Assembly (NCBI RefSeq): GCF_030296015.1
Contig: NZ_AP027368.1
Location: 3,520,839-3,584,838, forward strand
DNA length: 64,000 bases
Origin: Ferrimonas sp. YFM
GTDB lineage: Bacteria > Pseudomonadota > Gammaproteobacteria > Enterobacterales > Shewanellaceae
Direction of reading: 5' to 3'
The position numbers were made by a program, and so were the translations under genes. Below the pieces are notes generated by a model that saw only the letters and a program-made list of their open reading frames with translations, was not told where the DNA came from and ran no database searches. This document shows, piece by piece, positions 41,815 to 60,685 of the stretch (the stretch's first letter is position 1; each line of letters starts with the position of its first letter).

Positions 41815-44598
41815 ATGCCAGAACTGATCGTCAGCCCTAACGATAACAAGAAATACGCTCAGCTTACCCTAGACAATGGCCTAAGAGTCCTCCTTATTCA
41901 GGACCCGGCTGCCAATAAGTCTGCCGCAGCCATGGCAGTCAACGTCGGCCACTTCGATGATCCGGACGATCGGGAGGGAATGGCGCATTTCCTCGAACAT
42001 ATGTTGTTCCTGGGCACAGAAAAGTACCCCACTCCGGGGGATTACCAACGCTTCATCAGCAGGCATGGCGGCAGCCACAACGCCTGGACTGGCCCGGAGT
42101 TCACCTGCTACTTCTTCGACATCAACCACGACAGCTATGAAGAGGGGCTGGACAGATTCAGCCAGTTTTTCACCGCACCCCTGTTTGACGCCCATCTGGC
42201 GGACAAAGAGCGTCAATCTGTGGACTCCGAATTCAAGATGAAGCTCAGGGATGATGTCAGGCGCCTCTATCAGGTTCACAAGCAGACCGTCAATCCTGCC
42301 CACCCTTTCGCCAAGTTCTCCGTAGGCAATCTGCAGACCCTGGAGGACAGAGATGGCCGACCGGTCCGGGAAGAGTTACTGGAGTTCTATCGGCACCATT
42401 ATTCCGCCAATCTCATGACCCTGGTGATGGTCAGCCTGGCCCCGCTGGAACTGCAGGAAGCCTGGGCCCGTGAGCGTTTTTCCCTGGTGGAAAACCGCAA
42501 CATCACCAAGCAATATCCGAACATTGAACTCTATACCGATGAACAGCTGAATATCGAGGTCAGGGCCACCCCCCTCAAGGCCCAAAGGCGCCTCACCGCC
42601 ACCTTCCCTCTGCCCGGTGTAGACCAGTGGTATCACCTCAAGCCCCTCACCTTCCTGGCCCATATGCTGGGCTATGAGGGGCGCGGAAGCCTGCTCTCCC
42701 TGCTGAAGCGCCGAGGACTGGCCACCAACCTGTCCGCCGGGGGAGGCATAAATGGCTATAACTTCAAAGATTTCAATATCAGCTTCCAGTTAACCGAAAA
42801 GGGAAGCAACGAACAGGACACCATACTGGGACTGATGTTTCAGTACATCGAGATGGTCAAGGAGCAGTGCCTTGAATCTTGGCGTTACGACGAACGCAAG
42901 ACCCTGCTGGATCTGGCCTTTCGCTATCAGGAAGCCAGCAAGCCCATAGATCTGGCCAGTCACCTCGCCATCAATATGCATCACTACCCAGAGCATGACA
43001 TCATCTATGGCGATTACCGCATGGACAGGCTGGACACCCAGCTGGCCAGGGATCTTTTGGGAGTGATGCATCCTGGCAGGCTGAGACTGCAACTGGTGCT
43101 CCCTGAGCTTGAAACCGATCGACTTGCCAAGTGGTACAGCACCCCTTACTCAGTCCACCCCATCACCAGTGAGCGGCGCGCCAGCTGGGCCGCAGTGCCT
43201 AAGTCCGAAGAACTCAGCCTTCCCGGGCCAAACCCCTACATCGTCAAAGAGATTCAGGCTCGACATGAAGAGCCCGACTCCTCCGTTCCTCAAGTTGTGT
43301 TTGAGAAAAAGGGGTTCCGGCTATGGCACTTCAAGGACAGCGAGTTCAACGTCCCCAAGGGGCACCTGTTCATCGCTCTGGACAGTGAGGAGGCCCACCG
43401 AACCACACGGGCTGCGGCGTTGACGCGCCTCTACATCGCCATGCTGCTCGATGACCTCAGCGAACGTACCTATGCCGCAGAGATTGCCGGACTCAGTTAC
43501 AACATCTATCCCCATCAAGGGGGGCTGACTCTGCACCTCACAGGGTTCACCGGCAAACAGCAGGAGCTGCTCGGCCTGCTGCTGACCCAGATCAGAAAAC
43601 CCAATTTCCTGCCGAGGCGATTTAACGACACCAAGGCACGGTTGATGCGCAACTGGCACGCGGTGAGGAACGCCCGCCCCATCTCCAAGTTGTTTAACAG
43701 CCTGACCGCCACCCTTCAGCACCGCAGTTTCGAGCCCCTGCGCCTGGCGGCCGGGCTGGAAACTGCCACTCTGGAGGAGCTCCATGAGCACATCAGCAAT
43801 ATCTATAGCCAGATCAGCATTGAGGCCTTTGTCTATGGGGACTGGCTGCGCGCCGAAGCGGACTCTCTGGCTGAAGATCTGCACAATCAGCTGATTAAAT
43901 TCAGTTCACCCGGTCCCGACGTGGTGCGCGAGTTGGTGAGCATCGAGTCGCGGGGCACCATCTTGCGGGAGTTACCCGCTGAGCATCAGGACAGTGCCAT
44001 CCTGGTTTACTACCAGTCCCGACAGCACACCCCCGAAAAAGCGGCCATGTTCAGCCTGCTGAACCATGCCATGAGTTCCAACTTCTTTCACGAGCTCAGA
44101 ACCAAGCAGCAGTTGGGTTATATGGTGGGTACCAGCTATGTGCCACTCAATCACTATCCAGGACTGATGTTCTACATCCAGAGTCCTGTGGCCAGCCCGT
44201 TGCAACTCATCGAAGCCATCGATCAGTTTATCGCCGACTTCAGCTACGCCCTGATGCAAATTACCCATGACCAATGGCAGGCAACCAAGCAAGGTTTGAT
44301 ACGTCAGATTTTGGAGCCAGACGCCAATATCAACGCCAGGGCACAGAGGCTGTGGACCAGCATCGGCAACCACGACAACGACTTTGGATTGCGTCAGAGG
44401 ATAGCTGAAGAAATAGATACCCTGGAGCGAGCCGACATGATCCGCTTCATCGTCAACCGTATGAAGGCCAAAGTGCCCGACCGGCTGATCCTTTTCAGTT
44501 GCGGAAACCAGCATCAGGGCCAGTCGGTGATAGAGGGATCCAGCAATATTGAAGATCTGAATCGATTTAAATCGGAAACCGGTCGCTTTTCTATTTAA
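41815..44598 (+). CDS. M16 family (pitrilysin/insulysin-like) zinc metalloprotease
   Basis: 927 aa, the length of the pitrilysin group. The inverted zinc motif HxxEH is HFLEH at residues 58-62, with the downstream Glu in SVDSEFKMK; the second, inactive half carries FHELRTKQQLGYMVGTSY, which helps form the chamber. In contrast to E. coli PtrA there is no signal peptide (MPELIVSPNDNKKYAQL), so it is predicted cytoplasmic, more like insulysin. Own promoter; the sensor gene follows 140 nt later. Confidence 0.93.
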   Translation: MPELIVSPNDNKKYAQLTLDNGLRVLLIQDPAANKSAAAMAVNVGHFDDPDDREGMAHFLEHMLFLGTEKYPTPGDYQRFISRHGGSHNAWTGPEFTCYFFDINHDSYEEGLDRFSQFFTAPLFDAHLADKERQSVDSEFKMKLRDDVRRLYQVHKQTVNPAHPFAKFSVGNLQTLEDRDGRPVREELLEFYRHHYSANLMTLVMVSLAPLELQEAWARERFSLVENRNITKQYPNIELYTDEQLNIEVRATPLKAQRRLTATFPLPGVDQWYHLKPLTFLAHMLGYEGRGSLLSLLKRRGLATNLSAGGGINGYNFKDFNISFQLTEKGSNEQDTILGLMFQYIEMVKEQCLESWRYDERKTLLDLAFRYQEASKPIDLASHLAINMHHYPEHDIIYGDYRMDRLDTQLARDLLGVMHPGRLRLQLVLPELETDRLAKWYSTPYSVHPITSERRASWAAVPKSEELSLPGPNPYIVKEIQARHEEPDSSVPQVVFEKKGFRLWHFKDSEFNVPKGHLFIALDSEEAHRTTRAAALTRLYIAMLLDDLSERTYAAEIAGLSYNIYPHQGGLTLHLTGFTGKQQELLGLLLTQIRKPNFLPRRFNDTKARLMRNWHAVRNARPISKLFNSLTATLQHRSFEPLRLAAGLETATLEELHEHISNIYSQISIEAFVYGDWLRAEADSLAEDLHNQLIKFSSPGPDVVRELVSIESRGTILRELPAEHQDSAILVYYQSRQHTPEKAAMFSLLNHAMSSNFFHELRTKQQLGYMVGTSYVPLNHYPGLMFYIQSPVASPLQLIEAIDQFIADFSYALMQITHDQWQATKQGLIRQILEPDANINARAQRLWTSIGNHDNDFGLRQRIAEEIDTLERADMIRFIVNRMKAKVPDRLILFSCGNQHQGQSVIEGSSNIEDLNRFKSETGRFSI

Positions 44599-44738
44599 CA
44601 ACAGATGCGCACGGAGGTCATGGCCATGGAGAAGGCCTTAAAACCCTTGCTTACAGATGCCCCCTGTTCATTCAGATTGGGTCATGCTAGGTTCGATACA
44701 CTGCTCTTAGATAAGATAAATACATAATAAATACAGAC

Positions 44739-47700
44739 ATGACTTTAAAATCAGTTATTGCTCTGGGCCTCTCTTTGTTACTTTTGTCGCTCCCAACGAG
44801 AGCCGACTCACTGCAGCCCGAAACTAATTTCCAGCACCTCTCTACTGCGCAGGGCTTGAGCCAGTCAATTATTACCTCTATGGCTCAGGATAAAGCCGGC
44901 ATGCTGTGGGTGGGAACCTTAGAAGGCCTCAATCGATTCGATGGTCATGAGTTCAAGACGATCCGTCACCAACCTGAGAACAGCAACAGCCTGAGTTCGA
45001 ACACCATCCTGGACCTGATCTATCTGGAAAGCTCGGATAGCCTGGTTATTTCAACTCAGTCAGCTCTGGACCTTTACCATATTCCGAGTCAAAAATTTCA
45101 AACTATGCAGACTCCTGAAGGCGTGAAAATAAATAGCCTTTATCAAGAGGGAGAGGCCGTTTGGATCGCGACCAACGTGGGAATATTCAAGTTAAATATT
45201 GCCAACATGACGTTGGATAAAATTGTAGATGGAATAAATGCCGTTAAATTTATCCCCTACCAGGAAGGTGGCATTGCCTTATTGTACAACGGCTCGCTAA
45301 TCAATGCGGAAACATCATTAACCCTTCCTTCTCAAGGGTCATATTCAGACATTGACAAATCCAACGAGAACTTATTTCTTCTTGGTAAAGACAGTATACA
45401 GGTACTCAGCCAGAACAACTCAATAGAAGTTCCAGTACCGGAAAACCAACCGTTTCAAAAACTGAAATACAATAGGCATGACAATAGTGTATATGCAGCC
45501 TCTCAAAGTGGCATCTTCTCCTTCGACCTGAATAAAACAGACTCAAAAGGCAGGTACTACTCCAATAGTAGCAACACAAAACCAATCACTTCAATTTATT
45601 TTGACAGTGACAATAACTTGCTCTTTGGAACCAATGGCAATGGAATATTCAGAAAAAGCAGCAAAGAAAAAGTTGTTGAAAAACTCTCCAGTTTAGATCT
45701 AACCGATATTTGGGGCGCTCAACAATTTGGCAACTTCTTAGTGCTTGTGGAAGATGACCCCATTCTCAATCTATATGACCATTCTTTTTCTTTAGCAAAG
45801 AGTATAGATACAGGATTATCCGGTCCGAAAGGAATCAGCACATATGGCGATAAGTTACTGATCAGTGGTAAAAACAAAGTATTGGTCATCAGCGAAGATC
45901 TTAGCCAAACAGCTCTGCATCATCCAGCCACCTTCAGTGCTATTATCCCTGACCCATACTCAGGAACAGTATACTTGGGGACCGTAGAACACGGACTAAT
46001 GGTTTTAAAAGATATCAATGGTGAACCTCAGATTAATAAGGCCCCTGTTGACAGAAGAATCAATATGCCCATACTAAATGGCCTGGCGACAAAGCAAGCG
46101 CTATTTATTGGCACCCAAAGCGGTGCAATACAACTGACAAAACTTGATGAGACTCTTATAAGAAATGGTGAGTTCCTTAAAGGAAAAATTGTATCTGGCG
46201 TAAAACACTCGGAAGGCAAGATTCTCGCACAAGCTCTAGATAGTGGCATTTTTCAGATATTTAGTAACGGAGACATCAAACAGATCAGCAATCTCAACAA
46301 CCACATTGCTTATTCATTTGAAGTTACTGAAGACAGGATTATCAGTGCAACCTCTGGCGGCTTGGTTGTGCTAGAAAAGAACAGTGGCGAAATTCTAAAA
46401 GTTTTTGGGACCAAACAGGGATCCCTAAATGACTTCAATGGAATGGCGTCAGGAAAATATGAAGACAACATAATTTTTGGCGGAAGCGAAGGCATCAACC
46501 TTGTTTCTGACTTCAATAAATACCGAGAGTCAAGAATTTCTCCAGTATTGACATCTTTTAGGATTTTTAATAAAGACGTCCATATTGGACCTAATTTAGA
46601 GCAGGCAATTCCTTACGCAACTTCTGTAAATCTAAAATACAGTGACTACCCCTTCTCCTTTGCGTTCTCGTCTCCCAGAGAAGCGTTGGACCACGACCTC
46701 CAGTACTTCTATCGGCTTCAGGGGTTGGATGATCACTGGCTGGAAGCCAACGGCAACGCCAGGGTGGCCACCTACACCAATGTGCCCTATGGCAAGTATA
46801 CCTTTGAGGTAAAGAGCTCAGATGAGCTGGGTCATGAGAGCCCGGTGCGCAGCCTGGAGGTAGTAATTCTGCCACCATGGTGGCTGTCCAACGTTGCCAA
46901 GGGTCTGTACGCCCTACTCATTCTGGCCATGATCTATCTGGCATTGCGCTCCATCCAGCAGCGACGCATGGTGCAGCTGCGCATTGCTCAGAGTGAAGAG
47001 CGCCTCAAGCTCTCTTTGTGGGGCAGCGGTGACGAGATGTGGGACTGGGACATCCGCTCTGGACGAATCTATCGCTCCAACATCTGGGGTACCCTGGATT
47101 TCCCGCAGGATGGCCAACGCAGCACCCCAACAGACAATGGCAACATCCACCCCAATGACAGAGACAGGGTCAAGAAGGCTCTGGATGCGCACTTTAACGG
47201 CAAGCTTGATCACTTCGAAGCCACCTACAGGGTCAGAGACAAGCAGCACAACTGGGTGTGGATCCTTGACCGGGCCAAAATCGTTGAGCGGGACGGAGAG
47301 GATAAACCCACCCGTATGACGGGAACCATTAAAGACATCAGCAAGCTCAAGGAAGCCGAGGAGAGGCTGACCATCTTTGCCCGGGCACTGACCAACATCT
47401 CAGAGGGGATGTTCATCCTCGATGCCAACTTCCGCTATCTGGAGCTAAACGACAGCGCCTGCAAGATTCTGGGTCACGAGCGCCGTGACCTGACAGGCAG
47501 TCCTCTGGAACTGGGAGAGCTGGATGCGAGCTACTTCCAGGAGATCTCCAACATCGTGAAAATTCAGGGCAACTGGGCCTCAGAGCTGGAACACCTTAGG
47601 CCCGACGGTCGCCACATCCACCTCGATGTGGTCATTGACCTGATCAAAGCAGAAGACAATCAGCCCAGTTACTTTGTTGGCATTCTGACGGACATCACTC

Positions 47701-49022
47701 ACAGGAAGCAAAACGAAACAGAGCTCAGGCGCCTGACCAACAACGATGTTCTGACCGGCCTGCCCAATCGCACCTACTTGCAGATTAGCCTGGATGCCAG
47801 GATCAAGCGGGAAAATGCCCACTGCCTCTTTGTGTTTGATCTGGATAACTTTAAACGTATCAATGAGACTCTTGGGCACGATGTTGGTGACAGCCTTCTT
47901 TGCCACGTAGCCAATCGACTCAACTCTCAGCTGACCAACGAGTGCGAGCTCTATCGGTTGGGCGGGGATGAGTTCGCGGTCATCGCTGACAATGACTCCT
48001 CCATTAAAAATGCCACTAAGATTGCGACCCGCATCCTGGAAACCTTCGAACAACCCTTCCTGATTGAGGAGGAGGAGATCGTCGTCAAGGCCAGTATCGG
48101 CATTGTCAGCTACCCGGAAGATGACTCAGATCCCCACGCTTTGCTGAGAAAAGCCGACCTGGCCATGTACCATGCCAAAAGCCAGGGGGGACAGTGCTTC
48201 CAGTTCTTCAACGACTTTATGAATCAGGATGCAGTGCGGCGCTTTGAAGTTGAAGCAATGATTCGCCAGGCACTGAAGGAGAACTGGTTTGAGTTGCACT
48301 ACCAACCCAAGATGGCCCTGGCCAATGAGTCCATCTTTGGTATGGAAGCGCTGGTTCGGCTTAACCACCCTACCCAGGGACTGCTCTATCCCGATAAGTT
48401 CATCTCCCTGGCGGAAGAGACCGGCCTGATTGCCGAAATTGACACCTGGGTTCTGAAAAAGGCCTGTGAAACCGCACAGCAATGGCGCCAACAGGGACTG
48501 CTTAAGGGCCGCATGGCGGTCAATATCTCCAGCCAGCAGTTCGCCTCCAAAGAACTGTGCCAGCGCCTGGAAAACATCCTGGAAGAGACGGGACTGCCAC
48601 CAGAATGCCTGGAGCTGGAGATCACCGAGGGAACCGTCATTGAGAGACCGGACGAAGCGATCTCTATTATGCGCGAGCTGAACCAGATGCGTATTCACCT
48701 GGCCCTGGATGATTTCGGAACCGGATATTCTTCATTATCTTATCTGAAGAAGTTCCCCATCCACACGCTCAAGATAGATAAGTCCTTCATCGATGATATT
48801 GCCGTCTCAGATAAGGATATGAAGATGGTGGACTCCATTGTCACCATCGCTCACAACATGAATCTGCAAGTGGTCGCCGAAGGGATAGAAAATCTATCGC
48901 AACTTACTGTTTTGAAAGCTCTTAAATGCGAATTGATTCAAGGCTATCATTTCAGCAAGCCCCTCAAAAAAATGGATATAGAACAAAGACTTAAAAATGA
49001 GAAAGAAAAGTTAATGGCGTGA
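44739..49022 (+). CDS. Membrane sensor: propeller - Y_Y_Y - PAS - PAS - GGDEF - EAL (1427 aa)
   Basis: A predicted c-di-GMP turnover enzyme. Signal peptide 1-23; periplasmic two-component-regulator propeller about 25-630 (GLSQSIITSMAQDKAGMLWV, NRFDGHEF); Y_Y_Y domain about 634-710; one membrane segment about 721-738; two PAS domains about 755-990; GGDEF domain with intact GGDEF near 1075 but no RxxD inhibitory site in front of it; EAL domain with EAL near 1203 and the metal/catalytic motifs EITEG, DDFGTGYS, KIDKSF and QGYHFSKP. Both catalytic domains look competent by motif. The propeller part is visibly AT-rich (22/60 GC in 45601-45660) compared with the enzymatic part (35/60 in 46921-46980). 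It lies 88 nt upstream of the repeat-protein gene. Confidence 0.93.
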   Translation: MTLKSVIALGLSLLLLSLPTRADSLQPETNFQHLSTAQGLSQSIITSMAQDKAGMLWVGTLEGLNRFDGHEFKTIRHQPENSNSLSSNTILDLIYLESSDSLVISTQSALDLYHIPSQKFQTMQTPEGVKINSLYQEGEAVWIATNVGIFKLNIANMTLDKIVDGINAVKFIPYQEGGIALLYNGSLINAETSLTLPSQGSYSDIDKSNENLFLLGKDSIQVLSQNNSIEVPVPENQPFQKLKYNRHDNSVYAASQSGIFSFDLNKTDSKGRYYSNSSNTKPITSIYFDSDNNLLFGTNGNGIFRKSSKEKVVEKLSSLDLTDIWGAQQFGNFLVLVEDDPILNLYDHSFSLAKSIDTGLSGPKGISTYGDKLLISGKNKVLVISEDLSQTALHHPATFSAIIPDPYSGTVYLGTVEHGLMVLKDINGEPQINKAPVDRRINMPILNGLATKQALFIGTQSGAIQLTKLDETLIRNGEFLKGKIVSGVKHSEGKILAQALDSGIFQIFSNGDIKQISNLNNHIAYSFEVTEDRIISATSGGLVVLEKNSGEILKVFGTKQGSLNDFNGMASGKYEDNIIFGGSEGINLVSDFNKYRESRISPVLTSFRIFNKDVHIGPNLEQAIPYATSVNLKYSDYPFSFAFSSPREALDHDLQYFYRLQGLDDHWLEANGNARVATYTNVPYGKYTFEVKSSDELGHESPVRSLEVVILPPWWLSNVAKGLYALLILAMIYLALRSIQQRRMVQLRIAQSEERLKLSLWGSGDEMWDWDIRSGRIYRSNIWGTLDFPQDGQRSTPTDNGNIHPNDRDRVKKALDAHFNGKLDHFEATYRVRDKQHNWVWILDRAKIVERDGEDKPTRMTGTIKDISKLKEAEERLTIFARALTNISEGMFILDANFRYLELNDSACKILGHERRDLTGSPLELGELDASYFQEISNIVKIQGNWASELEHLRPDGRHIHLDVVIDLIKAEDNQPSYFVGILTDITHRKQNETELRRLTNNDVLTGLPNRTYLQISLDARIKRENAHCLFVFDLDNFKRINETLGHDVGDSLLCHVANRLNSQLTNECELYRLGGDEFAVIADNDSSIKNATKIATRILETFEQPFLIEEEEIVVKASIGIVSYPEDDSDPHALLRKADLAMYHAKSQGGQCFQFFNDFMNQDAVRRFEVEAMIRQALKENWFELHYQPKMALANESIFGMEALVRLNHPTQGLLYPDKFISLAEETGLIAEIDTWVLKKACETAQQWRQQGLLKGRMAVNISSQQFASKELCQRLENILEETGLPPECLELEITEGTVIERPDEAISIMRELNQMRIHLALDDFGTGYSSLSYLKKFPIHTLKIDKSFIDDIAVSDKDMKMVDSIVTIAHNMNLQVVAEGIENLSQLTVLKALKCELIQGYHFSKPLKKMDIEQRLKNEKEKLMA

Positions 49023-49049
49023 TCTAGAAAAGTTACCACCATTTCAACT

Positions 49050-49066
49050 TTGGCACGCCCATTGCT
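49050..49066 (+). promoter_or_regulatory. Sigma-54 (RpoN) -24/-12 promoter
   Basis: TTGGCACG (49050-49057), four bases, then TTGCT (49062-49066): an exact match to the consensus YTGGCACG-N4-TTGCW with the invariant GG and GC exactly 10 bp apart. Located 45 bp upstream of the repeat-protein start; expected transcription start near 49077. An enhancer-binding protein site is required upstream, presumably inside the 3' end of the sensor gene; none was identified. Confidence 0.85.
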
Positions 49067-49070
49067 GAGT

Positions 49071-49101
49071 CCTTGCCGACTAATTTTTATTTTCGGCAAG
49101 G
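49071..49101 (+). promoter_or_regulatory. Hairpin sequestering the ribosome binding site of the repeat-protein gene
   Basis: CCTTGCCGA (49071-49079) pairs perfectly with TCGGCAAGG (49093-49101) around a U-rich 13-nt loop. The 3' arm contains most of the Shine-Dalgarno AAGGA (49098-49102), 8 nt before the ATG. No T-run follows, so it is not a terminator. The sigma-54 start is expected inside the 5' arm. Confidence 0.7.
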
Positions 49102-49110
49102 ACAAACGCC

Positions 49111-50319
49111 ATGAAAACAGCAATGAAAACTCTGGTAATCGCCATCGCTTCCGCCACCGCTTTCTCTTCTTCTGCCTTCGTAAGCCATGCCGAAAATGGT
49201 GCCCAGGCCAGTCCTCAAATTGCTGGCTCTATTCCATGGATTAAGCTTGCTGAAAAACAAACCGCTGGCTCCATCCCATGGATCAAACTGTCCGAGCAGC
49301 AGACCGCCGGCTCCATCCCTTGGATCAAACTGTCCGAGCAGCAAACTGCCGGCTCTATCCCTTGGATCAAGCTCTCCGAGCAGCAGACCGCCGGCTCCAT
49401 CCCTTGGATCAAACTGTCCGAGCAGCAAACTGCCGGCTCTATCCCATGGATTAAGCTCTCCGAGCAGCAGACCGCCGGCTCCATCCCTTGGATCAAACTC
49501 TCCGAACAGCAGACCGCCGGTTCTATCCCATGGATTAAGCTTTTCGAGCAGCAGACCGCCGGTTCTATCCCATGGATCAAGCGCTCCGAGCAGCAGACCG
49601 CCGGCTCCATCCCATGGATTAAGCTCTCCGAGCAGCAGACCGCCGGCTCCATCCCATGGATTAAGCTCTCCGAGCAGCAGACCGCCGGTTCTATTCCTTG
49701 GATCAAACTGTCCGAGCAGCAGGTAGCAGGCTCCATCCCATGGATCAAGCTGTCCGAACAGCAGACCGCCGGTTCCATCCCATGGATTAAGCTCTCCGAG
49801 CAGCAGGTGGCTGGCTCCATCCCATGGATCAAGCTCTCCGAACAGCAGACCGCCGGTTCTATTCCATGGATCAAGCTGTCCGAGCAGCAGGTAGCAGGCT
49901 CCATCCCATGGATCAAACTGTCCGAGCAGCAGACCGCCGGTTCTATTCCATGGATCAAACTGTCCGAGCAGCAGGTAGCAGGCTCCATCCCATGGATCAA
50001 ACTGTCCGAGCAGCAAGTAGCAGGTTCCATCCCATGGATCAAACTGTCCGAGCAGCAGGTAGCCGGCTCCATCCCATGGATCAAGCTCTCCGAGCAGCAG
50101 ACCGCCGGTTCTATCCCATGGATCAAACTGTCTGAGCAGCAGGTGGCAGGCTCCATCCCATGGATCAAACTGTCCGAGCAGCAGGTGGCCGGTTCTATCC
50201 CATGGATCAAGCTGTCCGAGCAGCAGGTGGCAGGCTCCATCCCATGGATCAAACTGTCCGAGCAGCAAACCGCCGGTTCTATCCCATGGATCAAACTGTC
50301 CGAGCAGCAGACCGCCTAA
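49111..50319 (+). CDS. Exported tandem-repeat protein: 26 copies of a 14-residue unit (402 aa), family not recognised
   Basis: Residues 1-27 are a Sec signal peptide (MKTAMKTLVIAIASATAFSS, cleavage likely after SHA). After a 10-residue linker (ENGAQASPQI) the whole protein is 26 uninterrupted copies of AGSIPWIKLSEQQT or the Val-ending form, plus one final Ala. Each copy has one Trp, one Pro, one Lys, one Glu and no Cys. Only four non-T/V deviations exist: Ala and Lys in copy 1, Phe in copy 8, Arg in copy 9. There is no C-terminal anchor, sortase, autotransporter or type I secretion signal. Alternating hydrophobic residues in SIPWIKL suggest a short strand and a polar turn, so a solenoid or fibre is possible; a precursor of many identical peptides is an alternative. 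Control appears to be by sigma-54 and a leader hairpin. Function unknown. Confidence 0.85.
   Translation: MKTAMKTLVIAIASATAFSSSAFVSHAENGAQASPQIAGSIPWIKLAEKQTAGSIPWIKLSEQQTAGSIPWIKLSEQQTAGSIPWIKLSEQQTAGSIPWIKLSEQQTAGSIPWIKLSEQQTAGSIPWIKLSEQQTAGSIPWIKLFEQQTAGSIPWIKRSEQQTAGSIPWIKLSEQQTAGSIPWIKLSEQQTAGSIPWIKLSEQQVAGSIPWIKLSEQQTAGSIPWIKLSEQQVAGSIPWIKLSEQQTAGSIPWIKLSEQQVAGSIPWIKLSEQQTAGSIPWIKLSEQQVAGSIPWIKLSEQQVAGSIPWIKLSEQQVAGSIPWIKLSEQQTAGSIPWIKLSEQQVAGSIPWIKLSEQQVAGSIPWIKLSEQQVAGSIPWIKLSEQQTAGSIPWIKLSEQQTA
49222..50313 (+). repeat. 26 x 42-bp in-frame tandem repeat
   Basis: 26 consecutive 42-bp units encode the 14-residue repeat. Units differ mostly at synonymous positions (GGC/GGT, TCC/TCT, ATC/ATT, CCA/CCT, AAA/AAG, CTG/CTC, GAG/GAA, CAG/CAA). 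The last codon is Thr in copies 1-11, 13, 15, 17, 21, 25 and 26 and Val in 12, 14, 16, 18-20 and 22-24. Most units contain CCATGG. Confidence 0.97.
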
Positions 50320-50358
50320 CTCAACCAATCAGAATATTCACCCTGACAGAGGAGCAGT

Positions 50359-50475
50359 ATGATGATCAAAATGGTAATCACACTTCTGAGGGACTCACTG
50401 GTTCGCAAACCTCGTAAGCGAATCAAAGCTGAATTGGATATCAGAGAAGTACCGGCAGGAAGCTGGTGGTCCTAA
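50359..50475 (+). CDS. Small basic peptide, 38 aa, co-directional with the repeat protein
   Basis: ATG 50359 lies 5 nt after GAGGAG, a strong ribosome binding site, 39 nt after the repeat-protein stop. The product starts hydrophobic (MMIKMVITLLRDSL), has a very basic middle (VRKPRKRIKAE) and ends DIREVPAGSWWS. The tail AGSWW resembles AGSIPW of the repeat. It shares the transcript with the repeat gene, and a terminator follows 21 nt after the stop. It could be a partner, a chaperone-like peptide or a regulator; no homologue is recognised. Confidence 0.6.
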   Translation: MMIKMVITLLRDSLVRKPRKRIKAELDIREVPAGSWWS

Positions 50476-50496
50476 AGACCGACGCACAGAATAAGT

Positions 50497-50521
50497 AAAG
50501 GAGCCAATGGCTCCTTTACTT
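50497..50521. terminator. Bidirectional terminator after the repeat-protein operon
   Basis: AAAGGAGCC-AAT-GGCTCCTTT, a perfect 9-bp stem with a 3-nt loop; T-rich sequence on both sides. The stop codon of the convergent 65-aa gene lies in its right arm. Confidence 0.75.
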
Positions 50522-50713
50522 TATGTTCCACAGCACATCACCCTGCTGAAGCGAACGGCGAAATGCCAGGTTGGCGTGAACCCTAAACAGGGGCCACAAC
50601 ATGGGACCGACGAAGAAGCCGGCAATTCCCCACCTTTTAGGGGACAGGCCACTTTTCAAGGCTTCCGCATAGAAGAAGGCCGAGCTGGCACACATCAGCA
50701 GTAACCACAACAT
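50516..50713 (-). CDS. Small membrane protein of unknown function (65 aa)
   Basis: MLWLLLMCASSAFFYAEALK forms one hydrophobic helix and GIAGFFVGPMLWPLFRV a second, followed by a polar tail. ATG 50713 is the most natural start; two GTG codons 3-4 codons upstream are alternatives. The Shine-Dalgarno is weak. Composition and the two clean helices suggest a real gene. Confidence 0.55.
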   Translation of the reverse strand: MLWLLLMCASSAFFYAEALKSGLSPKRWGIAGFFVGPMLWPLFRVHANLAFRRSLQQGDVLWNIK

Positions 50714-50773
50714 ACTACGCACCACGAAATTACAGGGCTGGCCATTATATAGTCAGCCAGATGAGCAGCCAAT

Positions 50774-50800
50774 AAAAAAGGCAGCCAGGGCTGCCTTTTT
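50774..50800 (-). terminator. Rho-independent terminator of fadJ
   Basis: AAAAAGGCAGC-CAGG-GCTGCCTTTTT stem just past the fadJ stop. Confidence 0.88.
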
Positions 50801-50816
50801 CAATCTATACCCTTTA

Positions 50817-52940
50817 TCAGGAATAGAAGCGCTCATCAGCAGCGGCCATGGACAGCAGGCGCTCACAGGGCGCAAAGCGGTCACCGAAGCGCGCCTCATA
50901 GCCTTTAAGAAGGTCCACCAAGCGTGCAGGCCCAAGGCTGTCGATGTAACGGAACGGGCCTCCCAGGAAGGGGGGGAAGCCAATGCCAAAGATGGCACCA
51001 ATGTCGCCGTCTCGGGCACTGGCGATGATCCCTTCATCCAGGCAGCGGACCGCTTCATTCAGCATCTGTACGACGCAACGTTCCGCCAGCTCTGAGTCCG
51101 ACAATCTTCCGTCAGGGGTAACACCAAGAACCTTGTAAACGCTTTCATCGACTGGTTTTTTGCCCTTTTTCTTGGCATCAAACTTATAAAAACCCTTAGC
51201 GTTCTTCCGGCCTTTGCGGCCATCCGCCAAAAGTTTGGCGAAAGCTGGGGGGGAAGCGAACCGCGATCCCAGTTCCGCCTCCAGAATCGGCGAAATTTTG
51301 GCGCCCACATCAATGCCGACTTCATCCAAAAGTGTAACTGGACCCACAGGAAAACCGAATTTAACCAGTGCTTTATCAAGTTTATCTATGGGTTCACCTT
51401 CTAAAACAAGGTTTGCGGCCTCATTCATATAGGGGGCTAAAATGCGATTTACATAGAACCCAGCGCAATCTTGAACCACAATGGGTGTTTTCCCCTGTTT
51501 CTTCGCAAAGGCCACCGTAGTGGCAATGGTTTCAGAGGAGGTGCCTTTGTGAGCAATCACCTCCACCAGAGGCATCTTCTCAACCGGTGAGAAGTAGTGC
51601 AGACCGATCACCTTATCGGGTCGGCTGGCAGCTTCGGCGATCTGGCCGATGGGCAAGGAGGAGGTGTTTGACGCAAAGATGGTCTCGTCACCGCAGTGCT
51701 GTTCAACATCCTTAACCATCTGATGTTTAAGATTAAGGTCTTCAAACACCGCTTCGACAACCATGTCCACATCCTTCACGCCGGAGTAATCAACGGTCCC
51801 GGTCATCATGTTCATGGTCTTGTCACGATCTGCGGCAGTGAGATGACGTCGCTTCACCTTTTTGTCCAGCTGTTTCCAGGTGGAAGCCAGGGCAGCGCTG
51901 ATCCCCTGGTGACCAATATCCTTGATGCGCACAGGAACCTTGGCCTTGACCGCGGTTACATTGGCGATACCACCGCCCATCAAGCCGCCACCAAGGACCA
52001 TGGCTTTGTGAACCTTGGACGGTTTGACCTCACCTGCGCCGGTCTCCTTCTTCATCTCTGTGGTGGCAAAGAAGATGGAGCGCAGTGCGGCAGACTCCGG
52101 AGACATCACCAGATCGGCAAAGTGACTCGCCTCCATCTTGAGCCCCTCTTCCAGGTTGCCGGTGGAGGCTTTAACACACTCGATGATCTTGGCCGGGGCC
52201 GGGTAATTGCCCTGGGTCTTCTTCATTACCGTCTTCAGGGCCTGGTCGTAGATGACGTTACGCCCCATCGGGGTCATCTCCAGGACCTTCTCGATGCCTT
52301 TGAGTCTGGGCTTGGTGGACTTACGCTTGCCCTTACTCACCCACTTCTTGGCCGCTTCCAGCAGTACTGTATTGGGCACCATCTCATCTGCGACACCGAG
52401 TTTGACCGCCTGCTTAGGGCGCAGCTGCTTTCCGGTGAGCATCATATCCAGAGACTTGGCGATGCCCACCAGCTTGGGCAGGCGCTGAGTCCCGCCACCG
52501 CCTGGCAGGATGCCCAGCTGTACTTCCGGTAGACCCAATACCGTTTTTGGACTGTTGCTGATCACCCGATAATCGCAGGCCAGGGCCAGCTCCAGGCCTC
52601 CGCCCAGGCAGGGCCCATTGATGGCCGCCACCACAGGCACGCTCAGTGCCGCCAACTCATTAAGGAGCTTGTGACCATCACGCGAAAGCTTATAGACATC
52701 TTCCCTGGTTTCACAGGCGGCCAGCATATTGATGTCAGCACCGGCGATAAAGGAGTCGGGTTTGCCTGAAGTGAAGACCACACCGGACAAGTCGCTTTGA
52801 CTGCCCAGGAAATCCAGAATATGACGAACCTCTTCACCAAACTCGCTGCGCAGCGTGTTCATGGTTTCACCAGGAACATCCATGGTGATCACGGCGATCT
52901 TGTCGTCGCCCACCACTACCTGAAAGCTGTTAGTCTTCAT
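50817..52940 (-). CDS. fadJ: Fatty acid oxidation complex subunit alpha FadJ
   Basis: Multifunctional enoyl-CoA hydratase / 3-hydroxyacyl-CoA dehydrogenase of beta-oxidation. 707 aa. The crotonase half contains FIAGADINM and NGPCLGGGLELALACDYR; the dehydrogenase half has NAD-binding VLGGGLMGGGIA and the HYFSPVEKMPLVEVI segment. The length and the partner FadI point to FadJ rather than FadB. Shares one base with the fadI stop (TAATG). Confidence 0.95.
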   Translation of the reverse strand: MKTNSFQVVVGDDKIAVITMDVPGETMNTLRSEFGEEVRHILDFLGSQSDLSGVVFTSGKPDSFIAGADINMLAACETREDVYKLSRDGHKLLNELAALSVPVVAAINGPCLGGGLELALACDYRVISNSPKTVLGLPEVQLGILPGGGGTQRLPKLVGIAKSLDMMLTGKQLRPKQAVKLGVADEMVPNTVLLEAAKKWVSKGKRKSTKPRLKGIEKVLEMTPMGRNVIYDQALKTVMKKTQGNYPAPAKIIECVKASTGNLEEGLKMEASHFADLVMSPESAALRSIFFATTEMKKETGAGEVKPSKVHKAMVLGGGLMGGGIANVTAVKAKVPVRIKDIGHQGISAALASTWKQLDKKVKRRHLTAADRDKTMNMMTGTVDYSGVKDVDMVVEAVFEDLNLKHQMVKDVEQHCGDETIFASNTSSLPIGQIAEAASRPDKVIGLHYFSPVEKMPLVEVIAHKGTSSETIATTVAFAKKQGKTPIVVQDCAGFYVNRILAPYMNEAANLVLEGEPIDKLDKALVKFGFPVGPVTLLDEVGIDVGAKISPILEAELGSRFASPPAFAKLLADGRKGRKNAKGFYKFDAKKKGKKPVDESVYKVLGVTPDGRLSDSELAERCVVQMLNEAVRCLDEGIIASARDGDIGAIFGIGFPPFLGGPFRYIDSLGPARLVDLLKGYEARFGDRFAPCERLLSMAAADERFYS

Positions 52941-54250
52941 TATTCCACCTCCAGAATCATGGCAGCACCCAGGCCACCGGCGGCGCAGGCCGTAGTCAGT
53001 CCAATGCCGCCTCCGCGGCGCTTAAGCTCGTTACACATCTGAGTGATCAACCGGCCTCCGGTGGCGGCAAAGGGGTGGCCATAGGCCAGCGAGCCTCCCA
53101 TCACATTGAACTTGGCCATATCGATTTCACCTATGGCATCGCTGCGACCCAGCTTCTCCGCGGCAAATTTCTTGGACTCGAACATCTTCATATTGGCCAG
53201 AGCCTGGGCAGCAAAGGCCTCATGCATCTCAATCAGGTCCAGATCCGCCAGGGTCATGCCCGCTCTGTCCAGGGCAAGGGGGGTGGCATAGGAGGGCCCC
53301 ATCAGCATGTCATCCCAGACATCGATAGCCGCAAAGCCCCAGCTGCGGATGTATCCGATGGGGTTGTAGCCCAGGGCCTTGGCTTTGGACTCGGGCATCA
53401 GGATCAGCGCGGAGGCGCCGTCGGTCAGAGGCGTGGAATTCGCAGCTGTTACCGAACCATGCTTCTTGTCGAACACAGGCTTCAGTTTGGCCAGTTTTTC
53501 AGCCTGAATATCGGCGCGAATGTTGTTGTCCTCACTGATGAAGCTCTTGTAGGGCGGTACGTGACAGGTCATCACCTCATTGGCCAGGTTGCCCGCTTTC
53601 CAATTCTCAGACGCCAACTGGTGAGAGCGCACAGCCATGGCATCCTGATCGGCGCGGCTGATGCTGTGGGTCTTCGCCATCTGCTCTGCGGTCTGCCCCA
53701 TGGAAATGCCTGTAGAATACTCAGCAACGGCAGGCGGCACAGGAGCCAGGTCTTTGATACTCAGACGCTTGAAAATCTTCAGGCGATCGCCCAGGCTGCG
53801 AGCCTTAGTCAGATCCACCAGGGCCCGAGCCAGTTTGGTGGACACGGTAATGGGCAGCACTGAGCTGGAGTCTGAACCTCCTGCAATGCCCACCTCCGCG
53901 GTGCCGGCCAGAATCGACTCAGCCACGTTCACTGTGGACTGGAATGATGTCGCGCAGGCCCGGGTGACACTGTAGGCATCGGTATGGACGTTCATGCCCG
54001 TGCCCAACACGATTTCGCGGGCAATATTGGGTGCCTTGGGCATCTGAATTACCTGCCCATACACCACCTGATCCACCAGCTTGGGATCCAGGTCATTGCG
54101 GGAAAGCAGTTCAGCCACCACCATCTTGCCCATATCCAGGGCTGAAACCCCGTGAAAAGCCGTGGCTTGACGAGCAAAGGGCGTCCTCAATCCCGCCACA
54201 ATCGCAATCCGGTCACCGTTACGGGTTTTGACCTCTTGTCTTGTTGTCAT
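52940..54250 (-). CDS. fadI: 3-ketoacyl-CoA thiolase FadI
   Basis: Thiolytic last step of beta-oxidation, partner of FadJ. 436 aa. Catalytic Cys in [10 protein letters not shown], His in [11 protein letters not shown], and the second Cys in [17 protein letters not shown] 54250 preceded by GGATAAAGG. First gene of the fadIJ operon, with a FadR-like operator 53 bp upstream. Confidence 0.96.
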
Positions 54251-58830: not shown

Positions 58831-60685
58831 ACTGCACTTCCTTCGCCCCCTATGGCTACTGGCGCTGCTGGCCCTTCCCGGACTGTGGCTGCTTCTAAAA
58901 CAACTTCGTCAGCAGAGGGAAAACTGGCATCAGCTGATGCCCGCCCATCTGCATAAGGCGATGCTGATCTCCCCACAGGCCCAAAGCTACACCGCCCCCA
59001 AGTGGCCATGGGTGGCTGCCGTGCTGGCGCTGATCACCCTGGCTGGTCCAAGCTGGCAGAAGCAGGAGGTGCCGGTGTTTCAGCTCAACCACGGCCGGGT
59101 GCTGGTGATGGACATGAGCTACTCCATGTACGCCACCGACCTGCCCCCCAACAGGCTGACTCAGTCCAGATACAAGGCCATCGACCTGATGCGCCGCTTT
59201 GATGAAGGCGAAACCGCTTTGATCGCTTACGCCGGGGACGCCTTTGCCCTGGCCCCCCTTACCGACGACAAGGAAACCCTGCTCAACCTGGTGCCCAACC
59301 TGTCACCGGAGATCATGCCCGTCCCCGGTTCGGACCTGCCAAGTGCCCTGGAGCTGGCCAACCAGCTGCTCAGAGATGCCGGCTACCACCAAGGGGAGAT
59401 CATTCTGTTCATCGACGGCATCAACCCGGAGCATGCCGATGAATCACTGAAACTGGCCGCATCCTACCCCTGGACTCTCAAGGTCTATGCCCTTGGCAGC
59501 GAAGCTGGCGCCCCCATGCGGGCACCCAGTGGCGAGTTGGTTAAGAGCCGCAGCGGTGAAGTGGTGATCGCCCAAACAAATCTGCCATTGCTGGGTAAGT
59601 TGGCCGACACCGGCAGCGGCGAACTCATCTCCTACAGAGGCGACGACCAAGATGTCGAGCAACTGGCCAGAACCCGCAGCAATGACGAAAAGGGAAGTGA
59701 AGAGGCCCAGAGGCAAACCAGCCAATGGCAGGACATGGGCGTCTACCTGCTGCCCCTGCTTCTGCTGCCCGCAGCCATCTCATTGAGGCGCCAATGGGCC
59801 ATGGCGCTGTTGCCGCTGCTACTGCTGTCCCCCACTCACAGTGATGCCGCCTGGTGGCAATCCAACAACGCGCAGGTGCAGCAACTGCTGAACGACCAGC
59901 AATATGCCGAAGCCGCCGAACGCCTGCCAGCAGGCGCGCCGAAAGCCGATGCCCTCTACCGGGCCGGCGACTACCAAGGGGCACTGGAGGCCTATCAGCA
60001 ACTGCCCGAATCCGCAGAAACACTCTATAACCAGGGCAATGCACTGGCGCAGATGCAGCAGTTTGAACAGGCCAAAGAGGCCTACAGCCAAGCCCTGGAA
60101 AGAAAGCCAGAACTGACTCAAGCACAAGAGAACCTGGAGCTGATTGAGCAGTTACAGCAGCAGCAGCCGCAGCAGCCGCAGCAGCCGCAGCAGCCGCAGC
60201 AGGGCGAGAATGAGCAGAAGAACGACGATCAGCAACAGGGCAACCAGCCAGGTTCGAATCAGGATTCCGCATCGGAACAGGAGAATGCAGAGCAGGAGCA
60301 GCAGGGCGACGATAGCCAACAGTCAGGCTCCGACCAGCAGGACTCGCCACAGCAATCCGAAGCGCCATCGCCAGATCCACAACAGGCGCCCCAACCCTCC
60401 GACTCAAACCCGCAGCCCGAGAGCGAACAGGGTGAGCAGACCCATTCCGACACCCCGGCTGACGCCGCCCAAAGGGAAGAAACGAAAGACAACGACGAGG
60501 CTCAGCCACTGGCGGCAGCAGCCGAATCCTCCACCTCGACCCATGACGAGGCGCAGCAGGTGGATCCCCAGGTCCTGGAGCGAATACCTGATGACCCGAG
60601 TATCCTTTTAAGAAACAAGATGAAATTAGAATACGAACGGCGCCGTCGAGCCGGCAAGATTAACGAGGAGCGCACCCAGTGGTAA
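58823..60685 (+). CDS. VWA and TPR domain membrane protein with Gln-rich tail (BatB/BatC-like)
   Basis: 620 aa. N-terminal membrane segments, a VWA domain with MIDAS MDMSYSM near residue 95, another membrane region about 305-335, TPR-like repeats about 350-435 (LYNQGNALAQMQQFEQAKEA), then a long Gln/Pro/Ser/Glu-rich disordered region with a CAGCAGCCG tandem repeat, and a conserved basic end (LRNKMKLEYERRRRAGK). Appears to be a fusion of BatB- and BatC-like functions. Confidence 0.92.
   Translation: MSELHFLRPLWLLALLALPGLWLLLKQLRQQRENWHQLMPAHLHKAMLISPQAQSYTAPKWPWVAAVLALITLAGPSWQKQEVPVFQLNHGRVLVMDMSYSMYATDLPPNRLTQSRYKAIDLMRRFDEGETALIAYAGDAFALAPLTDDKETLLNLVPNLSPEIMPVPGSDLPSALELANQLLRDAGYHQGEIILFIDGINPEHADESLKLAASYPWTLKVYALGSEAGAPMRAPSGELVKSRSGEVVIAQTNLPLLGKLADTGSGELISYRGDDQDVEQLARTRSNDEKGSEEAQRQTSQWQDMGVYLLPLLLLPAAISLRRQWAMALLPLLLLSPTHSDAAWWQSNNAQVQQLLNDQQYAEAAERLPAGAPKADALYRAGDYQGALEAYQQLPESAETLYNQGNALAQMQQFEQAKEAYSQALERKPELTQAQENLELIEQLQQQQPQQPQQPQQPQQGENEQKNDDQQQGNQPGSNQDSASEQENAEQEQQGDDSQQSGSDQQDSPQQSEAPSPDPQQAPQPSDSNPQPESEQGEQTHSDTPADAAQREETKDNDEAQPLAAAAESSTSTHDEAQQVDPQVLERIPDDPSILLRNKMKLEYERRRRAGKINEERTQW
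60156..60202 (+). repeat. CAGCAGCCG tandem repeat in the VWA/TPR gene
   Basis: About four in-frame 9-nt units coding for Gln-Gln-Pro inside the disordered linker; prone to length change without frameshift. Confidence 0.85.

What the first reader, a model, noticed from the sequence alone, without database searches (positions are those of the whole stretch)
49111..50319. Exported protein made of 26 near-identical 14-residue repeats, family unknown
After a signal peptide and a short linker, the protein is nothing but AGSIPWIKLSEQQ(T/V) repeated 26 times without interruption. I know no described family with this unit. One Trp, one Pro, one Lys and one Glu per copy, no Cys, and no anchor or dedicated secretion signal. 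It could be a beta-solenoid or amyloid-like surface fibre, a ligand array, or a precursor cut into many identical 14-mers. These options are inference; the repeat itself is directly visible.
Basis: partly seen in the sequence, partly recalled or inferred. Interest (0 to 1): 0.92.

Follow-up and report, generated by a model that had tools for sequence, protein, structure and literature searches.

The report
Matched peptide repeats and sensor
Next to a membrane sensor, this marine bacterium and most of its relatives carry an exported protein made of many copies of one short peptide; the peptide's sequence changes from species to species in step with the sensor's outer part, which is what a lock-and-key peptide signal in Gram-negative bacteria would look like.

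Summary
In detail: 26 tandem 14-mers after a signal peptide. It is the Ferrimonas member of a fast-evolving family found at one syntenic place in most genomes of the Shewanella/Ferrimonas family: sensor (two-propeller/Y_Y_Y ectodomain, PAS, GGDEF, EAL), sigma54-like promoter, repeat gene, conserved 38-aa peptide ending in WW, convergent fadJ. The unit's core is a heptamer, x-x-P-x-[IV]-[KR]-x, in 1 to 40 copies, with unit lengths 9 to 17. Core and sensor ectodomain are both hypervariable and change together, although 2 kb of conserved cytoplasmic coding lies between them. Sister species with about 1% divergence in the cytoplasmic half have similar ectodomains if the core is the same (median distance 0.09) and very different ones if it differs (0.56). 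Where ectodomain and background disagree, the core follows the ectodomain (44 v 7, 11 ties), the WW peptide the background (41 v 10), the spacer neither (19 v 17). Best reading: the repeats are a multi-copy precursor of a species-specific peptide sensed by the neighbouring c-di-GMP enzyme. Binding, cleavage and release are inferred, not shown.

The parts
44739..49022 (+). sensor gene, 1427 aa: signal peptide, two-propeller (Reg_prop) + Y_Y_Y ectodomain, one membrane segment, PAS-PAS-GGDEF-EAL
   Evidence: Pfam; ectodomain fold equals BT4663-type sensors; within 2 kb upstream of the WW peptide, same strand, in 112 of 113 testable loci
44808..46886 (+). hypervariable ectodomain of the sensor (proposed receptor part)
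   Evidence: mean pairwise identity 0.19-0.33 over residues 101-600 against 0.56-0.87 over 751-1400; tracks the repeat core
46971..49019 (+). conserved cytoplasmic half (PAS-PAS-GGDEF-EAL)
   Evidence: GGDE[FY] and EAL[VIL]R present in 105 of 105 aligned sensors
49051..49065 (+). sigma54-type promoter site TGGCACGCCCATTGC
   Evidence: 0 mismatches to TGGCAC-N5-TTGC; at most 2 mismatches in 88 of 88 testable relatives against 13 of 440 shuffles
49111..50319 (+). repeat gene, 402 aa: signal peptide (about 27 aa, read by eye), 10-aa linker, 26 x 14-aa units, final Ala
49222..50313 (+). 26 tandem units; core heptamer SIPWIKL
   Evidence: core pN/pS 0.043 and spacer 0.190 over 102 genes
50350..50354 (+). 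AGGAG Shine-Dalgarno sequence of the WW peptide
   Evidence: read from the sequence
50359..50475 (+). 38-aa partner peptide ending in AGSWWS (WW peptide)
   Evidence: profile hits 137 of 152 genomes of the family; pN/pS 0.19 over the 1862 of 7626 pairs with at most 10 residue differences
50500..50523 (+). possible terminator GGAGCC-AAT-GGCTCC-TTTACTTTA
   Evidence: read by eye only; the terminator scan listed no site

Best explanation
The gene is a multi-copy precursor of a short, species-specific peptide ligand. A sigma54-dependent promoter drives it together with the WW peptide (sites shown, activity inferred). The product is exported by the Sec route (signal peptide read from sequence). Each unit carries one core (here SIPWIKL), and the array is probably cut next to the conserved Ala at every unit boundary, giving many identical peptides (inferred). 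The peptide binds the two-propeller ectodomain of the sensor encoded just upstream (inferred from co-variation, not shown) and sets the activity of its GGDEF-EAL half, hence c-di-GMP (motifs shown, effect inferred). Core and ectodomain change together, so each species or lineage has its own matched pair, as in the pherotypes of Gram-positive peptide signalling. The WW peptide follows the background and is probably a constant partner, not part of the specificity.
For: Sensor within 2 kb upstream in 112 of 113 testable loci. Sensor match in 145 and WW peptide in 137 of 152 genomes, none with the WW peptide alone (searches compared). Non-overlapping sister pairs with cytoplasmic distance up to 0.03: 6 same-core pairs have median ectodomain distance 0.088, 14 differing-core pairs 0.555, P = 5e-5, with no difference in cytoplasmic distance. 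Discordance test: core follows ectodomain 44 v 7, 11 ties, and 41 v 8, 12 ties, with fadJ as independent background; WW goes the other way, 10 v 41 and 16 v 33; spacer neutral, 19 v 17. DNA profiles of six differing-core pairs show two divergent islands, ectodomain and repeat gene, split by a much better conserved cytoplasmic half; in the same-core pair L147/L159 the ectodomain is 90-99% identical while the cytoplasmic half and downstream flank are 75-89%. The one other Y_Y_Y sensor of the L157/L160 genomes is 92-100% identical end to end. Core pN/pS 0.043. Four genomes have, at the same place behind the same kind of promoter, an exported protein of about 59 aa ending in one core-like segment. 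C-terminal residue Ala in 106 of 107 proteins counted, the residue that precedes 1287 cores.
Against: No binding, cleavage, release or c-di-GMP change has been measured. No processing protease or exporter is seen between the M16 peptidase and fadI, and M16 shows no signal peptide by eye. The related fold is known from glycan sensors (BT4663). Over all 4656 pairs the partial correlation of ectodomain with core given the cytoplasmic half is only 0.077 (28 of 500 permutations reach it), while that of the cytoplasmic half with core given the ectodomain is larger, 0.26: the signal lies among close relatives. Loci share ancestry, so the sign tests overstate significance; per cluster the vote is 18 v 3 with 22 of 43 undecided. 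In 7 of 62 discordant loci the core is closer to the background neighbour. The two classes of sister pair touch: same-core L186/L188 is at 0.328, differing-core L166/L182 at 0.320. F. aestuarii has repeats but no WW peptide; G007 has a sensor but no repeat gene seen behind it. The single-copy segments lack the basic residue of the core, and outside the family the proteins end in the core, not in Ala.
Confidence: 0.66

Rival explanations
1. The array is the ligand but stays uncut: a polyvalent protein in the periplasm or on the surface that is bound by, and clusters, the propeller sensors, for instance so that the cell monitors export of a matrix or envelope protein.
For: Co-variation of core and ectodomain fits equally well; no protease seen in the immediate locus; up to 40 copies.
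Against: One core in L191 and three in L193, and short proteins with one core-like segment in four genomes, are not polyvalent arrays; the Ala at nearly every boundary and at the C-terminus is not explained.
Confidence: 0.2
2. Surface fibre, beta-solenoid or amyloid-like protein unrelated to the sensor.
For: AF2 gives a solenoid-like model; signal peptide and repeats.
Against: Unit length 9, 11, 13, 14, 15, 16 or 17 and copy number down to 1; model pLDDT 65, no fold match at E 0.001, known AF2 artefact; does not explain coupling to the ectodomain.
Confidence: 0.04
3. Two hypervariable segments without direct contact, for example both driven by phage or predator pressure, with apparent coupling from joint recombination.
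For: Both segments are exported; allele replacement seems to occur; weak all-pairs signal.
Against: The 2 kb between them and the WW gene just behind the core follow the background, not the ectodomain; the spacer inside the same repeat gene is neutral.
Confidence: 0.07
4. Secreted antagonistic peptide (bacteriocin-like), with the ectodomain as its target or guard.
For: Polymorphic, exported, many copies.
Against: The partner that varies with it carries GGDEF and EAL motifs, and no polymorphic immunity gene was seen: the WW peptide is conserved and does not follow the core.
Confidence: 0.03

Closest known systems
ComQXPA pherotype system of Bacillus (passages of PMC6334282 seen); agr of staphylococci (recalled)
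   Same: Small exported peptide next to its membrane sensor; peptide and outer part of the sensor are polymorphic together, signalling half conserved; close relatives can carry different types.
   Different: Gram-negative; precursor with 1 to 40 tandem copies; no ComQ or AgrB-like gene seen in the immediate locus; receptor is a double propeller with GGDEF-EAL output instead of a histidine kinase; sigma54-type promoter; no sequence relation known to me.
Hybrid two-component sensors of Bacteroides, BT4663 type (PDB 4a2l, 4a2m, 3v9f)
   Same: Ectodomain fold: Reg_prop propellers and Y_Y_Y.
   Different: BT4663 senses heparin and heparan sulphate (title of 4a2l) and signals by kinase; here the ectodomain is hypervariable and paired with a peptide gene, and the output domains are GGDEF-EAL.
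Multi-copy peptide precursors (yeast alpha-factor; multi-core RiPP precursors) - recalled
   Same: Signal peptide followed by many near-identical peptides with a constant residue at each boundary.
   Different: No KEX2-like or modification enzyme seen in the immediate locus; sequence unrelated.

Membership tests
Peptide pherotype systems (ComQXPA/agr kind) | receptor ectodomain and peptide polymorphic together, cytoplasmic half conserved | tested here: met
   weak over all pairs
Peptide pherotype systems (ComQXPA/agr kind) | dedicated processing/export gene (ComQ, AgrB) beside the peptide gene | tested here: not met
   the plausible genes from M16 (41815) to fadI (54250) are M16, sensor, repeat, WW peptide, fadJ, fadI; genes further out were not examined
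Peptide pherotype systems (ComQXPA/agr kind) | peptide activates its own sensor and not that of another type | not testable with these tools
   needs binding or reporter assay
BT4663-type Reg_prop/Y_Y_Y sensors | double-propeller plus Y_Y_Y ectodomain | tested here: met
   Pfam Reg_prop and Y_Y_Y above cut-off; phmmer 1.8e-43 to 4a2l; Foldseek TM 0.78
BT4663-type Reg_prop/Y_Y_Y sensors | histidine-kinase output | tested here: not met
   GGDEF and EAL instead
GST_N_4 (Pfam hit of the whole repeat protein) | match of the domain that does not depend on summing over copies | tested here: not met
   whole protein 70.7 bits against a cut-off of 30; two-unit sequences give no GST hit
Beta-solenoid / functional amyloid | constant unit length and many copies | tested here: not met
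   periods 9-17, copies 1-40
Multi-core RiPP precursors | modification enzyme beside the precursor | tested here: inconclusive
   none from 41815 to 54250; an enzyme elsewhere in the genome was not searched for

The most novel reading that the evidence does not exclude
A Gram-negative peptide pherotype system, core to Shewanella and Ferrimonas: cells release many copies of a 9- to 17-residue peptide from a tandem precursor, sense only their own type through a hypervariable double-propeller receptor, and convert this self-recognition into c-di-GMP.
Probability: 0.5. Interest if true: 0.97.

Novelty: categorically new. Interest (0 to 1): 0.93.

Why it matters
Gene-encoded peptide pheromones with matched polymorphic receptors are known chiefly from Gram-positive bacteria (recalled). 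It gives a predicted ligand for each of 97 loci (71 different cores) and the receptor beside it, so the idea can be tested with synthetic peptides in a model organism. It would also show that propeller sensors related to glycan sensors can read peptides, and would give the WW peptide a context.

Tried and rejected
Beta-solenoid/fibre, Pfam GST_N_4 membership and bacteriocin readings were considered and rejected or down-weighted for the reasons given. The WW peptide as specificity partner was tested and rejected: it follows the background. The spacer as part of the specificity was tested and found neutral. The all-pairs approach gave only a weak signal, I think because distant ectodomains are saturated; close relatives were used instead. 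Column-by-column association between ectodomain residues and core positions gave scattered weak hits, the script failed at its last table, and I draw nothing from it. The 50-residue windows drop from 0.21-0.43 in the ectodomain to between -0.15 and 0.07 beyond residue 775, but the cytoplasmic half also served as covariate there, which pushes its own windows to zero; I do not count this as evidence. One paper (PMC4168976, one passage) names SO3084 among genes whose transposon insertions were unexplained; I could not tell whether that is this sensor. Rfam found nothing in 48000-51000. Rows dropped: outgroup loci L117-L125 from all core statistics; L052, L053, L056, L197, L214 and rows with N near the end from the C-terminus count; genes with fewer than 4 regular units; loci without a recognised start, with N or with under 150 bases upstream. 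Loci with runs of N inside the repeat gene (L053, L056, L138, L192 among others) were left as they read.

Full report
1. What is there. The ORF at 49111-50319 (+) encodes a signal peptide (read by eye), a 10-residue linker, 26 tandem 14-residue units and a last Ala. 23 of 26 units are AGSIPWIKLSEQQ[TV]; three differ outside AGSIPWIK; 24 of 26 are distinct in DNA. It is unique in its genome. The nearest named record is Ferrimonas futtsuensis, 98% identical in the sensor's PAS region, so the window is from a Ferrimonas.

2. The operon. A perfect match to a sigma54-type site lies at 49051-49065. A 38-aa ORF with AGGAG in front follows at 50359-50475. The 1427-aa gene just upstream (44739-49022) has Reg_prop and Y_Y_Y domains outside and PAS-PAS-GGDEF-EAL inside. 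Convergent fadJ lies downstream. I fetched 127 loci around WW-peptide or repeat hits; 123 show a WW peptide. Of these, 10 have under 3 kb upstream; in 112 of the other 113 the sensor lies within 2 kb upstream on the same strand (the exception, L070, has its sensor match about 15 kb away), and convergent fadJ is found in 112 of 123. TGGCAC-N5-TTGC occurs with at most 2 mismatches in 88 of 88 testable upstream regions (8 with none, 48 with one, 32 with two), against 13 of 440 shuffles.

3. Distribution. A repeat-unit query finds 26 of 152 genomes of the family, because units diverge. The WW-peptide profile finds 137 of 152 (E 0.01) and the sensor PAS profile 145 of 152 (E 1e-30). Comparing the two lists: 137 have both, 8 the sensor only, 7 neither, none the WW peptide alone; in G118 and G143 the sensor match (3e-38, 1.5e-36) is weak enough to be a paralogue, and at the G143 locus only part of the sensor is read (L072). 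Of the 8 sensor-only genomes, G001 has the repeats, G135, G136, G139 and G141 have a short protein instead (paragraph 4), G007 shows neither, the G011 stretch did not reach a readable sensor end, and G118 was not looked at. In 394 genomes of the order 40 have the WW peptide, 9 of them outside the family (E 0.01); in 369 of the class only the window's own genome does (E 0.001). Of six named loci that I take to lie outside the family (titles Thalassotalea, Pseudocolwellia, Colwellia, Endozoicomonas), Pseudocolwellia agarivorans and a Colwellia MAG show sensor, repeats and WW peptide, two show the WW peptide without a clear repeat gene in my filter, two show neither.

4. Anatomy of the unit. Cores were located with the pattern P-x-[IVLFMA]-[KRE]-x, so part of their constancy is by construction. 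In 97 loci position 5 is I, V or L, position 6 is K or R in 96, the last is mostly F, V, L or Y, and positions 2 and 4 vary most. 71 different cores occur in these 97 loci. Modal spacing: 13 in 99 of 111 genes, otherwise 9, 11, 14, 15, 16 or 17; copies 1 to 40, median 11, in the 80 complete genes with a recognised signal peptide. Within genes the core is under strong purifying selection (pN/pS 0.043; spacer 0.190; 102 genes). Ala precedes the core in 1287 units (next Thr, 26) and ends the protein in 106 of 107 counted. Further out the motif drifts and the proteins end in the core itself: RIPVRFEPLEEK, RVIIRYAQQDEQ, RRGVRINLESEKVS. In a second outside group (five loci) short proteins of about 40-50 aa end in segments such as IEDQVGL, present twice in L123, with no P-x-[IV]-K core.

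5. Hypervariable ectodomain. Mean pairwise identity of sensors (400 random pairs) is 0.19-0.33 over residues 101-600 but 0.56-0.87 over 751-1400. AF2 with 36 sequences gives pLDDT 90.8, and the model matches the BT4663 ectodomain (TM 0.78; sequence E 1.8e-43). GGDE[FY] and EAL[VIL]R are present in 105 of 105.

6. The two variable segments are coupled. (a) Among non-overlapping sister pairs with cytoplasmic distance up to 0.03, 6 same-core pairs have median ectodomain distance 0.088 (0.024-0.328) and 14 differing-core pairs 0.555 (Mann-Whitney P 5e-5; cytoplasmic distances do not differ, P 0.93); up to 0.06 it is 6 against 24, P 3e-6. In L157/L160 the cytoplasmic distance is 0.000, the ectodomains differ at 56% and the cores are GYPHVKF and GFPHVKV. 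(b) Eight pairs were profiled in DNA. In the six with differing cores the ectodomain bins lie mostly at 40-75%, the cytoplasmic half mostly at 84-100%, the repeat gene at 59-91%, fadJ mostly at 85% or more. The same-core pair L202/L204 is 87-98% in nearly all bins. (c) For the 62 of 97 loci whose nearest neighbour differs by ectodomain and by cytoplasmic half, the core is closer to the ectodomain neighbour in 44, to the other in 7, tied in 11. The WW peptide shows the reverse (10, 41, 11) and the spacer nothing (19, 17, 18; 54 loci with 13-mers). With fadJ as background, 89 loci: core 41, 8, 12; WW 16, 33, 12. One vote per cluster: 18 to 3, 22 undecided of 43. (d) The one other Y_Y_Y sensor in the genomes of L157/L160 is 92-100% identical throughout, so fast ectodomains are not a general trait there; this is a single control protein.

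7. Against. The all-pairs partial correlation of ectodomain with core is small (0.077; 28 of 500 permutations reach it), and that of the cytoplasmic half with core given the ectodomain is larger, 0.26. Loci are related, so P-values are optimistic. Seven discordant loci go the other way. The two classes of sister pairs just touch (0.328 and 0.320). Nothing biochemical is shown. No protease is seen in the immediate locus.

8. Explanation. Core and ectodomain stay matched across an intervening conserved stretch that follows the background. Drift or recombination alone would hardly give this; selection for matching pairs would, and the simplest reason for that is binding. Low-copy versions, boundary Ala, homogenised cores and freer spacers point to a peptide precursor; the uncut polyvalent array remains possible (0.2). 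Sec export, sigma54 control and c-di-GMP output follow from recognised elements and are not measured.

9. Known or not. Only the sensor's domains are found in family libraries; nothing credible names the repeat or the WW peptide. Nine paper searches on the locus and on the idea showed no report of this locus or of a tandem-repeat peptide signal in Shewanella; I saw listings and starts of abstracts only, 15 of 80 papers and 15 of 36, and most subscription papers are not in the library. So novelty is likely but not proven. [quoted passage not shown] It works like that, but it is not a member.

Noticed in passing
L136, L140, L141, L149, L165, L166, L171, L172, L182, L185, L192: Eleven loci carry two WW-peptide matches.
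   Followed up: no
L147 versus L159: Two Shewanella share a nearly identical ectodomain inside more diverged flanks, as if an allele had moved between species.
   Followed up: partly
L070 (G113): Repeat gene and WW peptide lie beside fadJ but the sensor match is about 15 kb away.
   Followed up: no
L245, L261: Records titled Marinobacter nauticus and Endozoicomonas sp. carry the sensor; L245 has the contig length of G012, a genome of the window's own genus, so its title is probably wrong.
   Followed up: no
L312 (G013): A genome of the window's genus has a much changed unit, AALPWWGDEKPNQI, in 13 copies, still followed by a WW peptide.
   Followed up: no
window 49087-50328, - strand: A 413-aa antisense ORF runs through the array, a mechanical result of the 42-base period.
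   Followed up: partly
window 60155-60202: CAGCCGCAG short tandem repeat.
   Followed up: no
unit cores, e.g. GIPNIKF: Loose likeness to the PapR7 heptapeptide ADLPFEF quoted in the start of the abstract of PMC6568020; no claim of relation.
   Followed up: no
L280 / L046 (F. aestuarii): Unit SHPWIKLSEQQT nearly equals the window's, with the ectodomain 39% identical to the window's against 23-27% for L241, L245, L257 and L273 at similar PAS identity (71-72%), but no WW peptide.
   Followed up: partly
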